NCBI GenBank assembly: GCA_037783545.1 | Contig: JBBELK010000384.1 | Location: 372,001-436,000, forward strand | Direction: 5' to 3' | Source: Henricia sp. BOLD:AAB3569 | Lineage: Eukaryota > Echinodermata > Asteroidea > Spinulosida > Echinasteridae | Length of the DNA stretch: 64,000 nt | Shown: positions 45,001-52,821 of the stretch, piece after piece | Layout of the letters: each line of letters begins with the position of its first letter | Numbering within the stretch: position 1 is the first letter of the stretch | Notes under the pieces: generated by a model | Told to the model about the DNA's origin: nothing | Seen by the model: only the letters and a program-made list of their open reading frames with translations | Database searches by the model: none | Position numbers and translations under genes: made by a program

Positions 45001-48000
45001 AAATCCATAGACACATGCAATTGTAGTGTTCTCAAGAACTATCAGATGAAGTTTGGTGAGAACTGGACTGCAGGTTGTTGCGCTAGACATGTTATAATGT
45101 TGGCCTGTTAAAGTTGCTGCACAACCATATGGGAAAATCACGCTATCTATGGGGGATATGTATCCCCTACAGTTCTAGGGGTAAATGGCCATCACGGTAA
45201 CTTGATGACAAGGATGCTAGTTCTCTGTGTACACCCATTAGATTTAATTTTGTAATTCTACCACTCAACAACGGTAGTATAAGAAAAAAAGTCCAATGGG
45301 ACGACCACTTACATGATTTAAAGACAGATTATAGGACAAGATTATCTTGCTGTTTTTTATCACCTTAATTAAGTCACAGAAATTTAGAAAAAAAAGAAGT
45401 CCTTTTTAACAAATGTACACACTTGATAGAATGGGATATGTTTAGGAGCCAATTGTTGCCCTAAATTATCTAGTGTTCTGGAAAAATGTTTTACTCACCC
45501 TGTGAGTTGGAAGGATTCATGACTTCATCAATCATAATTTCAGCAAAATGAAAATAATCATCTCTCTGTCTGTCCACAGTCACATATCGAGCGATGACAG
45601 GCGGATTCACTCCAAATGGCAGTGTGGCTCCAGGTGTTGCTGCCTGAGCTTGTGTGACTTCGCCAATCACTGTATTGTCCGAGTAGGATGGACTCAAACC
45701 ACCCCGTACTTTAGCGCCTTCTAATCGCCGAGCTGCAAAGGTAAGAAAGAGAAATCTCAGTTAAGGTGAAGTATGTACTTTATTAATTTGAAACTTGGAA
45801 TGAGAGAAAAATTGGGTCCATCCTGATGAGTGAGTATACCAACTGTGCTTTATACATGTAGCTCAGCTGGTAGAGCGTCTGCCTAGTGAGTCAGAGGTCT
45901 CTGGTTCGTATCCCGATAAGGACCTTACGATTTTTTTCTCATATCCCAAGTTTGGTTGTTTCATTTCAATGGTGATCAAGCCCGCACCATACCAGACGTT
46001 GTGTTTATTAATTTGGACAGCAGTCATTTGAATGCACCAGTTAGACAGAATTATCCTGTTACTTGACAGGACACATTTCATGATAAAAATCTAGAAATGC
46101 CCATTTGCGTGGTACTCATTCTCTTTAATCGTCCTGCTAGATTCATTAGTTGTCTGTTGTATCTCCAGTACTCAATTGCATATGATATTTTTGCGCAAAA
46201 TAAACCTTATCGACGTTCTCAAAGCATCATGGGATTGGATGACAAGTGAAGCTGGCAATTTTCACACAAACCTATGGGGCTCTGGGGACATGACAATGTT
46301 CATCGATTTTATTCTCGTTTCTGTGAAGCGATTGACATGCGCTAACGGATACCAATAAAGCCCGCTCAACATACATGTACAATTTCGCACGGAAACCAGG
46401 GCGAAGTTTGATTGAGCAACTACAGTAAACTATCGACTAGAGTCCCTCGAGCGAAGGGTATTTTTTTCAGTTGTTCGAAGGAACTTTCTTCGAACTGCAC
46501 ATGTACTTTTTGTACACATAGGCTACTGTGTGCGCGCTGTGTGCGCGCTGTGTGCTAAAGCTGGGCGTGGTTTTGCAAAAATTGCTTACGGTTTTGTTGC
46601 ATTTTTAAACACTGGTGGAAAGGTTAGTTTTGTCACTAAAAGTGACAAATTTTGACATTTTTATGCGTGTTTCAATAAAGGGCACCGGCGGCAGTTAAAT
46701 AAAAAGGGCACGGCAATTTATTGCCGTGAAACATTCATGATTTTGAGGGCATCGCGGCAATGGCCCAGGGCACCGACGGCAATTGCCGTCGGTTATTTCG
46801 AGGCCTGCTTATCTGTGAGCAGTCATTTAATTATAGGCGCTACCCAGCACAATACTCATTTTGTTAATGCACCAACCCCACCCCCACTCCCTAGAACCTG
46901 AAAGGAATTCCTTTGAAATTTCTTGAATGTCTGAGACACAATGGGGAAACAATGGAAGGGAGGTACCCTCTGTCATATTGTGCTGCATATGGGCACAATA
47001 GAAAAATAGATTTGTATCCTAACTGTACAATGTATGTGTCATTTAAAGTAGGATGGTTGGCCTAGAGACTGAAATAATGCCAAAAATAACTAATTGCACA
47101 AGAAATATTTTTATCTTCGTCCAACATAAGTTCATAAGCATGCTGCTTTCATGTTAATGGCAGTAGTATTCAATGATTGTAAATTCCTTTCAATTATCGG
47201 TGGAATAATCTTCAATTCATAAATACCTTAGACAGTTTACGCATCCTCATTGGCTGAGAGCACGTCACGTGGGCAGTCTTAAACAGATGATTAAAAGGCC
47301 CAGTCAGTCTTAAAGATAGTATACATGATTGGTAAACTGTTACAAATAGTTTTATCCCCCTGTGTGATTGAAGATATGCATGATTAAAACCAACCTGAGC
47401 AAAAACCAGCTCCGTACTTCGTCTAACTTTTGAGAAAACAGTCAAAAAAGGGTTTGCAGTCATTTCGCCCCAAAACCACTTCGCCCAGAACCATTTCGCC
47501 CTGAACCACGGCCTGTGCACGAAGTGGTTTTGGGGCGTAGTGGCATTTGGGCGATGTTGTGTTTGGACGAAGTAATTTGGGGCGAAATGGCACTCGGGCG
47601 AAGTCGTTTGGGGCGAAATGGCACTTGGGCGAAATGGTTTTGGGGCGAATTGAATTCGTGTCTCATGAGACGAAAACTAATTGTTTTACTCATTTCTCAA
47701 AGACTATAGCACTTTAGACAAAACCATTCCAGGGGAAGTTTTCTACAGTCATCATGTTAATATTGTGTAAGTTAGGCGTAAATCTGTAAATTTCTGATTT
47801 TCGAGATTACCATGATGTATACTGCCTTTAAACACTTTTGAGCCTATGGCTCGCGGCCACACCTGCGCTCTGGTCGGTGCGTGTGAAACACGCACATGCA
47901 CACAGAAACTGCACGCTCCCGAAAGCAAATTGTGCACTGTGACAAGTACCCAGTCGTGTGCGTGTGCGTACAACACGCTTGCATTACACGTAACACGCGC

Positions 48001-52821: not shown

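What the first reader, a model, noticed from the sequence alone, without database searches (positions are those of the whole stretch)
45499..52821. Fucolectin-type (FTP/F5-8) domain fused to a Tie-like receptor kinase
Three exons upstream of the Tie Ig-EGF block encode a recognisable FTP domain ([28 protein letters not shown]...FAEI). Vertebrate Tie1/Tie2 have no such domain. FTP domains commonly bind fucosylated or sialylated glycans, so this receptor could sense glycans directly or use the domain to modify ligand binding. All 29 exons share one frame across 31.8 kb, which argues against a chance juxtaposition.
Basis: partly seen in the sequence, partly recalled or inferred. Interest (0 to 1): 0.8.

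Follow-up and report, generated by a model that had tools for sequence, protein, structure and literature searches.

The report
Starfish Tie receptor with lectin head
An echinoderm (probably sea-star) relative of the blood-vessel receptor Tie2 carries a fucolectin-type, possibly sugar-binding domain at its outer tip, and because the same combination recurs in related genes of the same genome it looks like a real receptor design and not an accident of neighbouring genes.

Summary
Confirmed and extended. On the minus strand three exons (52821-52705, 49337-49251, 45732-45499) encode one complete F-type lectin (FTP, F5/8) domain that reads on in phase 1 into a Tie-class receptor kinase ending at a stop near 21712 (28 window exons in my model). 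The Ig-EGF block's best solved match is human Tie2 (E 1e-40). Stronger evidence: of 13 Tie-type Ig1 exons found in this genome, the 11 at 58% identity or more have FTP exons upstream on the same strand; a signal-peptide exon 12.7 kb upstream of FTP1 is shared with a head-to-head paralog; my scan found no signal-peptide-like exon between FTP and Ig1 in three copies. Several paralogs seem to have two FTP domains; six of 11 places show no recognised kinase. The fucose triad His-Arg-Arg is kept, but the acidic partner and Cys-Cys are not. The mitochondrial code says echinoderm; starfish rests on recalled gene order. Glycan-gated signalling is plausible but untested. No transcripts were available. 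The SpTie1/2 paper (sea urchin, 2010), which may already show this domain, was not held.

The parts
52705..52821 (-). FTP (F-type lectin) domain, exon 1; cation-site motif AIDGN and the His of the fucose triad (CHT)
   Evidence: AG/GT, phase 1-1; paralog exons 82% (copy 2) and 61% (C504) identical
49251..49337 (-). FTP domain, exon 2 (WWSIDLG...VNR; first Arg of the triad)
   Evidence: AG/GT, phase 1-1; paralog exons 73% and 70% identical over the aligned part
45499..45732 (-). FTP domain, exon 3 (RRLEG...ARYVTVDR...FAEIMIDEV; second Arg of the triad)
   Evidence: AG/GTGAGT, phase 1-1; paralog exons 66% and 67% identical
43632..43937 (-). Tie-type Ig-like domain 1
   Evidence: AG acceptor seen at 11 of 11 places, phase 1 read by eye
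42831..43103 (-). Tie-type Ig-like domain 2
42557..42691 (-). EGF-like repeat 1
40581..40736 (-). EGF-like repeat 2 with the Tie2-like stretch [12 protein letters not shown]
40093..40188 (-). EGF-like repeat 3
39384..39425 (-). short Cys-rich exon at the end of the EGF block
   Evidence: found in copy 2, C504 and C2103
28585..38617 (-). fibronectin type III repeats (ten exons: 38617-38315, 36849-36553, 34366-34064, 32759-32542, 31535-31466, 30286-30180, 30024-29823, 29722-29620, 29441-29204, 28624-28585)
   Evidence: five fn3 stretches in Pfam
28329..28486 (-). transmembrane helix exon
   Evidence: top hydrophobic stretch in the control scan
21712..27577 (-). juxtamembrane and tyrosine kinase exons (27577-27328, 26352-26242, 25572-25382, 24475-24362, 23461-23391, 22583-22543, 22389-22293, 21826-21712 with stop); [16 protein letters not shown] and DFGLS present
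   Evidence: Pfam PK_Tyr_Ser-Thr 7.1e-84; Tie2 kinase 285 bits, FGFR1 226

Best explanation
The locus is one gene: a Tie-class receptor tyrosine kinase whose ectodomain begins with a signal peptide and one F-type lectin (FTP) domain, followed by Ig-Ig-EGF(x3), FN3 repeats, a transmembrane helix and an active-looking kinase. It belongs to an expanded FTP-Tie family in an echinoderm, probably a starfish. Shown by sequence: domain order, splice phases, linkage repeated in paralogs, kinase motifs present, His-Arg-Arg triad retained. Inferred: the FTP domain is the outermost recognition module; it binds a fucose-like or other glycan on a cell, a microbe or a secreted ligand and so clusters the receptor, or raises its avidity for an angiopoietin-like ligand, after which the kinases trans-phosphorylate as in Tie2. 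Paralogs without a recognised kinase could act as decoys or co-receptors.
For: FTP domain: Pfam and solved-structure matches. Tie identity: Ig-EGF block against Tie2 ectodomain 1.2e-40; kinase against Tie2 285 bits, FGFR1 226. Fusion: FTP exons upstream of Ig1 on the same strand at 11 of 13 places with an Ig1 hit; at the FTP-Ig1 junction a GT donor was visible at 9 of 11 places and an AG acceptor at 11 of 11. Copy 2 matches all 18 exons FTP1 to FN6b in order, C504 all 9 from FTP1 to the Cys exon. Signal peptide, FTP1-3 and Ig1 join without a stop in the window gene, and FTP1-3 with Ig1 in C504. Homologous signal-peptide exons in window gene and copy 2. No signal-peptide-like exon in three FTP3-Ig1 gaps by my scan. 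dN/dS over the three FTP exons 0.61 (bootstrap 0.38-1.02), 0.46 (0.26-0.70) and 0.41 (0.24-0.72). Triad His37, Arg64, Arg70 invariant in three paralogs and aligned to the eel agglutinin triad. A Tie-2-like receptor is listed among candidate coelomocyte or coelomic-epithelium surface markers of the starfish Asterias rubens (passage, PMC13409769).
Against: No cDNA or RNA-seq. All junction exons are phase 1-1, so frame proves little. Reading on past the FTP3 donor meets a stop after GlyGlu in the window gene and copy 2, so an unspliced FTP-only form cannot be excluded. In copy 2 the FTP2 donor in the homologous place puts the rest out of frame; only a neighbouring GTACAG donor keeps it open, so copy 2 may be damaged. 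Fucose motif only partly met: Thr, Ala or Ser in place of the acidic residue, no Cys-Cys; copy 2 has DEN for DGN at the cation site; C691 copies 1 and 2 have Lys at the second Arg. FTP exons evolve faster than EGF exons (0.09-0.17 in five of six pairs; the sixth, C504-C2103, has six changes and 1.40), and the bootstrap range of two FTP pairs passes 1. Six of 11 places show no recognised kinase. No ligand known. The top whole-chain row for the kinase is an EGFR chain with two matched stretches (300 bits).
Confidence: 0.65

Rival explanations
1. Same fused receptor, but the FTP domain no longer binds sugar; it is a spacer or a protein- or lipid-binding module, in the manner recalled for the discoidin domains of DDR1/2, helping dimerisation or matrix contact.
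For: Acidic partner and vicinal cysteines of the motif are absent. The second FTP copy of C691 copy 1 has no His at the triad place by eye. FTP exons evolve faster than EGF exons.
Against: The basic triad is invariant in three paralogs, and a His stands at that place in the first FTP domain of C691 copies 1, 2 and 4 (copy 3 not read there). The cation motif is kept in the window gene and C504.
Confidence: 0.3
2. Two neighbouring genes: an FTP gene ending before 43937 and a separate Tie gene.
For: No transcript evidence; phase 1-1 exons carry no information on joining; FTP exons are common in this genome (73 matches, a lower bound); a stop follows the FTP3 donor within three codons in the window gene and copy 2.
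Against: FTP exons precede Ig1 on the same strand at 11 of 13 Ig1 places; gaps of only about 0.4-3.5 kb; no signal-peptide-like exon in three gaps by my scan (253 bases of one gap unread), and only short patches of similarity between gaps (32 and 75 bases between window gene and copy 2, 16 bases between window gene and C504); signal-peptide exons upstream of FTP1.
Confidence: 0.05
3. Ordinary echinoderm Tie orthologue whose FTP domain is already in print, for instance in the SpTie1/2 paper (Dev Comp Immunol 2010). This concerns novelty and does not exclude the best explanation.
For: SpTie1/2 and SpTie-like genes are described as expressed in sea urchin coelomocytes and axial organ (passages in PMC6494969 and PMC12113024). 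The domain may predate the split of sea urchins and starfish.
Against: No title or abstract listed by the ten paper searches joins an F-type lectin domain to a receptor tyrosine kinase, but several lists were cut (for example 15 of 47, 15 of 908) and the 2010 paper is not held.
Confidence: 0.4

Closest known systems
Vertebrate Tie1/Tie2 (TEK)
   Same: Ig1-Ig2-EGFx3 block with the [12 protein letters not shown] stretch, FN3 repeats, one TM helix, Tie-class kinase
   Different: No FTP domain in vertebrate Tie (general knowledge); here more FN3 repeats than the three recalled for Tie2, and no third Ig domain in my model
SpTie1/2 and SpTie-like genes of Strongylocentrotus purpuratus
   Same: Echinoderm Tie receptors, more than one gene, expressed in coelomocytes and axial organ (passages)
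   Different: Ectodomain architecture not seen by me; primary paper not held
F-type lectins (eel agglutinin AAA, striped bass FBP32)
   Same: Best solved matches by profile, with the His-Arg-Arg triad aligned; FBP32 also has two copies in tandem
   Different: Acidic partner and Cys-Cys absent; here the domain heads a transmembrane kinase
Discoidin domain receptors DDR1/2 (recalled)
   Same: F5/8-superfamily domain at the N-terminus of a receptor tyrosine kinase
   Different: DDRs lack the Tie Ig-EGF-FN3 array and belong to another kinase class (recalled, not tested here)

Membership tests
Tie receptor tyrosine kinases | Ig-Ig-EGFx3 block homologous to Tie2 | tested here: met
   2gy5 E 1.2e-40, one stretch over profile positions 67-318 of 336; best hit outside Tie2 7.5e-6. 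The first 66 positions (start of Ig1) are not covered
Tie receptor tyrosine kinases | Kinase closest to Tie2 among solved kinases | tested here: met
   Tie2 285 bits, FGFR1 226, RET 223 (60 of 703 rows shown); one EGFR chain with two matched stretches scores 300 as a whole chain and stands above Tie2
Tie receptor tyrosine kinases | Third Ig domain after EGF3 and three FN3 repeats (layout recalled for vertebrate Tie2) | tested here: not met
   No third Ig exon in my model; five fn3 stretches in Pfam, six by my count. I therefore call it Tie-class, not a vertebrate-type Tie
Tie receptor tyrosine kinases | Binds angiopoietins | not testable with these tools
   needs binding data
F-type lectin domain | F5/8 family by sequence, closest to fucolectins | tested here: met
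F-type lectin domain | Basic triad His-Arg-Arg | tested here: met
   His37, Arg64, Arg70 invariant in 3 of 3 aligned paralogs, aligned to the eel agglutinin triad (residue roles from passages of PMC5712786)
F-type lectin domain | Full fucose motif HX24RXDX4(R/K) as printed in PMC5712786 | tested here: not met
   Thr66 (Ala, Ser in paralogs) in place of the acidic residue, no Cys-Cys; His to Arg has 26 residues between, as in eel agglutinin itself; Arg to Arg has 5 between, 6 in eel agglutinin and C504, 8 in copy 2
F-type lectin domain | Cation motif h2DGx | tested here: met
   AIDGN in the window gene, VIDGN in C504; copy 2 deviates with AIDEN
F-type lectin domain | Fucose or glycan binding | not testable with these tools
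   needs a protein assay

The most novel reading that the evidence does not exclude
In this starfish lineage the angiopoietin receptor became a multigene family of lectin-headed receptors: one or two F-type lectin domains on a Tie ectodomain, some with kinases and some without, head-to-head or in tandem. They may read glycans on microbes or self cells in coelomocytes, kinase members signalling and kinase-less members damping or tuning the response.
Probability: 0.25. Interest if true: 0.8.

Novelty: new variant of a known kind. Interest (0 to 1): 0.55.

Why it matters
A lectin domain fused to a growth-factor receptor kinase would be a direct molecular route from glycan recognition to tyrosine-kinase signalling. 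Echinoderm Tie genes are reported in coelomocytes and the axial organ (passages), so this bears on whether Tie receptors served immune or blood-cell roles before vertebrate vessels. The paralogs give ready contrasts: one or two lectin domains, with or without a recognised kinase.

Tried and rejected
Rejected: 'one frame shows fusion' as evidence, because the twelve exons from FTP1 to FN3 are all phase 1-1. Rejected: the two-gene reading, after paralog mapping and gap comparison, though no transcript was seen.

Mended on checking: my first paralog FTP sequences had joints typed from aligned pieces and left out three residues in copy 2 and three in C504. I rebuilt them from splice sites and repeated the alignment, PDB and Pfam steps: same triad, same six PDB sequences, Pfam 1.8e-11 and 1.2e-12. 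The joint residues in the Ig-EGF alignment and in the second FTP domain of C691 were filled by analogy and not rebuilt. dN/dS used DNA slices and is not affected.

No use: a tree of Ig2+EGF1 to place FTP-free Tie-like genes had long branches to C329 and human TEK and no starred branch, so the order of FTP gain and gene expansion is not settled. NCBIfam, made for prokaryotes, gave no match for the FTP domain.

Kinase absence rests on search only. One search scored 137 of 465 candidates at E 1e-6. Recognised kinase exons: window gene, C691 copy 4, C230, C1875, C221 (5 of 11 places). None recognised (6 of 11): C384 copy 2 (none by tblastn through 515 kb; it has a TM-like exon at about 500.2 kb ending at a donor-like site that also reads as a stop), C504 (none in the next 10 kb), C691 copies 1, 2 and 3 (copy 3 has a TM exon at 221.9 kb but none in 216-224 kb; regions beyond copies 1 and 2 not read), and C2103, whose 41.4 kb contig ends just past the EGF block.

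Cross-species tests were not possible: no other animal genome was searchable here. Not read: Tie-like Ig/EGF hits on C478, C1002, C369, C105, C216, C45, C497 and other C329 places. Beside two C329 places, 6 and 6.9 kb on the upstream side were read without an FTP match at E 0.05.

Full report
Observation. The gene lies on the minus strand. Exons at 52821-52705, 49337-49251 and 45732-45499 have AG/GT ends and phase 1-1. Joined, they match the whole 91-position Pfam profile F5_F8_type_C_2 (whole-protein E 3.6e-13) and F5_F8_type_C (6.4e-11). As a profile with two paralogs they match six distinct PDB sequences at E 0.01: FBP32 (1.1e-19), eel agglutinin 1k12 (2.3e-11), two Sm-hPAF and two fucolectin-related sequences. 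This is an F-type lectin domain and not a chance resemblance.

What it is joined to. Downstream exons continue in phase through Ig1, Ig2, three EGF repeats, a short Cys-rich exon, FN3 repeats, a transmembrane helix and a tyrosine kinase to a stop: 28 exons in the window and 1491 residues in my model. The Ig-EGF block, as a three-paralog profile, finds the Tie2 ectodomain at 1.2e-40; the best hit outside Tie2 is 7.5e-6. The kinase scores 285 bits against Tie2, 226 against FGFR1 and 223 against RET; one row stands higher, an EGFR chain with two matched stretches (300 bits for the whole chain). [16 protein letters not shown] and DFGLS are present. The gene is Tie-class. It differs from the layout recalled for vertebrate Tie2 in having more FN3 repeats and, in my model, no third Ig.

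Is it one gene? Better evidence comes from the same genome. A search with the Ig-EGF block (119 of 205 candidates scored) gave 13 places with an Ig1 match. Eleven of them, at 58-99% identity, are the window gene, C384 copy 2, C504, C2103, C691 copies 1-4, C230, C1875 and C221; each has FTP exons upstream on the same strand. The other two are on C329, at 36% and 32%, and the FTP search returned no C329 match at E 10. C2103 (41 kb) and C1875 (51 kb) look like alternative copies of C504 and C230 and are probably not independent, and duplicates of one ancestor are not independent tests either. Copy 2 matches all 18 exons from FTP1 to FN6b in order, and C504 all 9 from FTP1 to the Cys exon.

The junction. 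FTP-to-Ig1 gaps run from about 0.4 to 3.5 kb. In three gaps (1561, 3253 and 957 bases; 253 bases of the second unread) my scan found no ATG-plus-hydrophobic exon with a phase-1 donor. Between gaps only short patches are alike: 32 and 75 bases, with a partly overlapping repeat, between window gene and copy 2, 16 bases between window gene and C504, none between copy 2 and C504. The flanking exons are 65-73% identical. A GT donor was visible at 9 of 11 places and an AG acceptor at 11 of 11; phase 1 was read by eye. Reading past the FTP3 donor meets a stop after GlyGlu in the window gene and copy 2, later in C504, so an unspliced FTP-only product is conceivable. In the 36-38 kb upstream of the two head-to-head genes the scan gave three candidates per strand; one from each are homologous, MAFFGSYNEIFAILLAISILRE at C384:437567-437501 minus and MAFFGSYKEILFVLLTLSIVYE at 454630-454696 plus, and both join FTP1 in frame. 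Signal peptide, FTP1-3 and Ig1 read without a stop in the window gene, and FTP1-3 with Ig1 in C504. Copy 2 stays open only with a GTACAG donor at FTP2; the donor in the homologous place puts it out of frame, so that copy may be damaged.

Constraint. Nei-Gojobori dN/dS over all three FTP exons is 0.61 (window-copy 2, 142 codons, bootstrap 0.38-1.02), 0.46 (window-C504, 135 codons, 0.26-0.70) and 0.41 (copy 2-C504, 134 codons, 0.24-0.72). With two exons against C2103 it is 0.61 (0.35-1.08), 0.45 (0.24-0.84) and, for C504-C2103 with five changes, 0.19. Ig gives 0.20-0.41 over six pairs. EGF gives 0.09-0.17 over five pairs and 1.40 for C504-C2103 with six changes. FN3 gives 0.48 for window-copy 2. 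FTP looks constrained but looser than its neighbours.

Sugar site. In the alignment to eel agglutinin, with residue roles from passages of PMC5712786, the triad His52/Arg79/Arg86 corresponds to His37/Arg64/Arg70, invariant in window gene, copy 2 and C504. The cation motif reads AIDGN in the window gene. Against a classical site: Thr, Ala or Ser in place of the acidic residue, no Cys-Cys, AIDEN in copy 2, Lys at the second Arg in C691 copies 1 and 2, and no His by eye in the second FTP domain of C691 copy 1. A fucose-like ligand, an altered specificity or loss of binding are all possible.

Family. C691 copies 1-4, C230 and C1875 carry two exon-3-type FTP matches each upstream of Ig1, a sign of two tandem FTP domains. 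Only for C691 copy 1 were all three exons of the second domain seen; assembled with approximate joints it scores 3.6e-7 in Pfam F5_F8_type_C_2 and below the cut-off of F5_F8_type_C. Recognised kinase exons occur at 5 of 11 places; C691 copy 4 has matches to all eight juxtamembrane and kinase exons. Copy 2 and C691 copy 3 have TM-like exons but no kinase exon was found in the stretches read. C504 shows neither FN3 nor kinase in the next 10 kb and no FN3 match in the genome-wide search. Absence is by similarity search only.

Organism. A mitochondrial COX1 match reads under table 9: AAA at a conserved Asn, ATA at Ile, AGR at Ser, TGA at Trp, the echinoderm and flatworm code. Frames after COX1 read by eye as ND4L and COX2, and tRNA-Leu(-), tRNA-Asn(-) and tRNA-Gln(+) lie before it.

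Mechanism. Most likely the FTP domain adds an outer recognition site to a Tie receptor and promotes clustering or avidity, with Tie-type trans-phosphorylation following. My own estimate is about 0.93 for the fusion, about even for sugar recognition, and lower for immune use.

What is known. Passages in PMC6494969 and PMC12113024 call SpTie1/2 a sea urchin Tie orthologue expressed in coelomocytes and axial organ, and the former lists SpTie-like genes. A passage in PMC13409769 lists a Tie-2-like receptor among candidate surface markers of starfish coelomocytes or coelomic epithelium. The primary SpTie1/2 paper is not held, so I cannot say whether an FTP domain was described there. Ten paper searches, seen as listings and some cut short, showed no paper joining an F-type lectin domain to a receptor tyrosine kinase; the library lacks most subscription journals. 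Passages of PMC5712786 name other domains joined to F-type lectins, and the word kinase does not occur in that review. I call it a new variant of a known kind, with real risk that the architecture is already in print for sea urchin.

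Noticed in passing
G000:C384:454630-515336 (L050, L051, L015, L054, L010, L033, L034, L037, L052, L053, L055; a few short stretches unread): Head-to-head paralog of the window gene with matching exons from signal peptide to FN6b and a TM-like exon at about 500.2 kb, but no recognised kinase exon; its FTP2 splice site is in frame only with a GTACAG donor. A possible decoy, co-receptor or decaying copy.
   Followed up: partly
G000:C691 125-303 kb, minus strand: Tandem array of four FTP-Tie genes that each seem to have two FTP domains; only the 266-302 kb copy shows kinase exons.
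   Followed up: partly
window 58840-62265: By eye: a long inverted repeat (stretches near 62.2-61.0 kb recur as reverse complement near 60.2-58.8 kb), and a repeat starting AAAGGCCCTGTAGATGATCTG at about 60.9 kb and again at about 52.66 kb, like a mobile element.
   Followed up: no
G000:C955:8261, 24482, 40703 and C2104:7096: C955 holds three COX1 matches spaced 16221 bases apart, probably a concatemer of the mitochondrial genome kept as a contig.
   Followed up: partly
G000:C329 (about 2.19, 2.39, 2.44, 5.30 and 5.57 Mb), C478, C1002, C369: More divergent Tie-like Ig/EGF matches with no FTP match on these contigs; perhaps a second, FTP-free branch of Tie-like receptors.
   Followed up: partly
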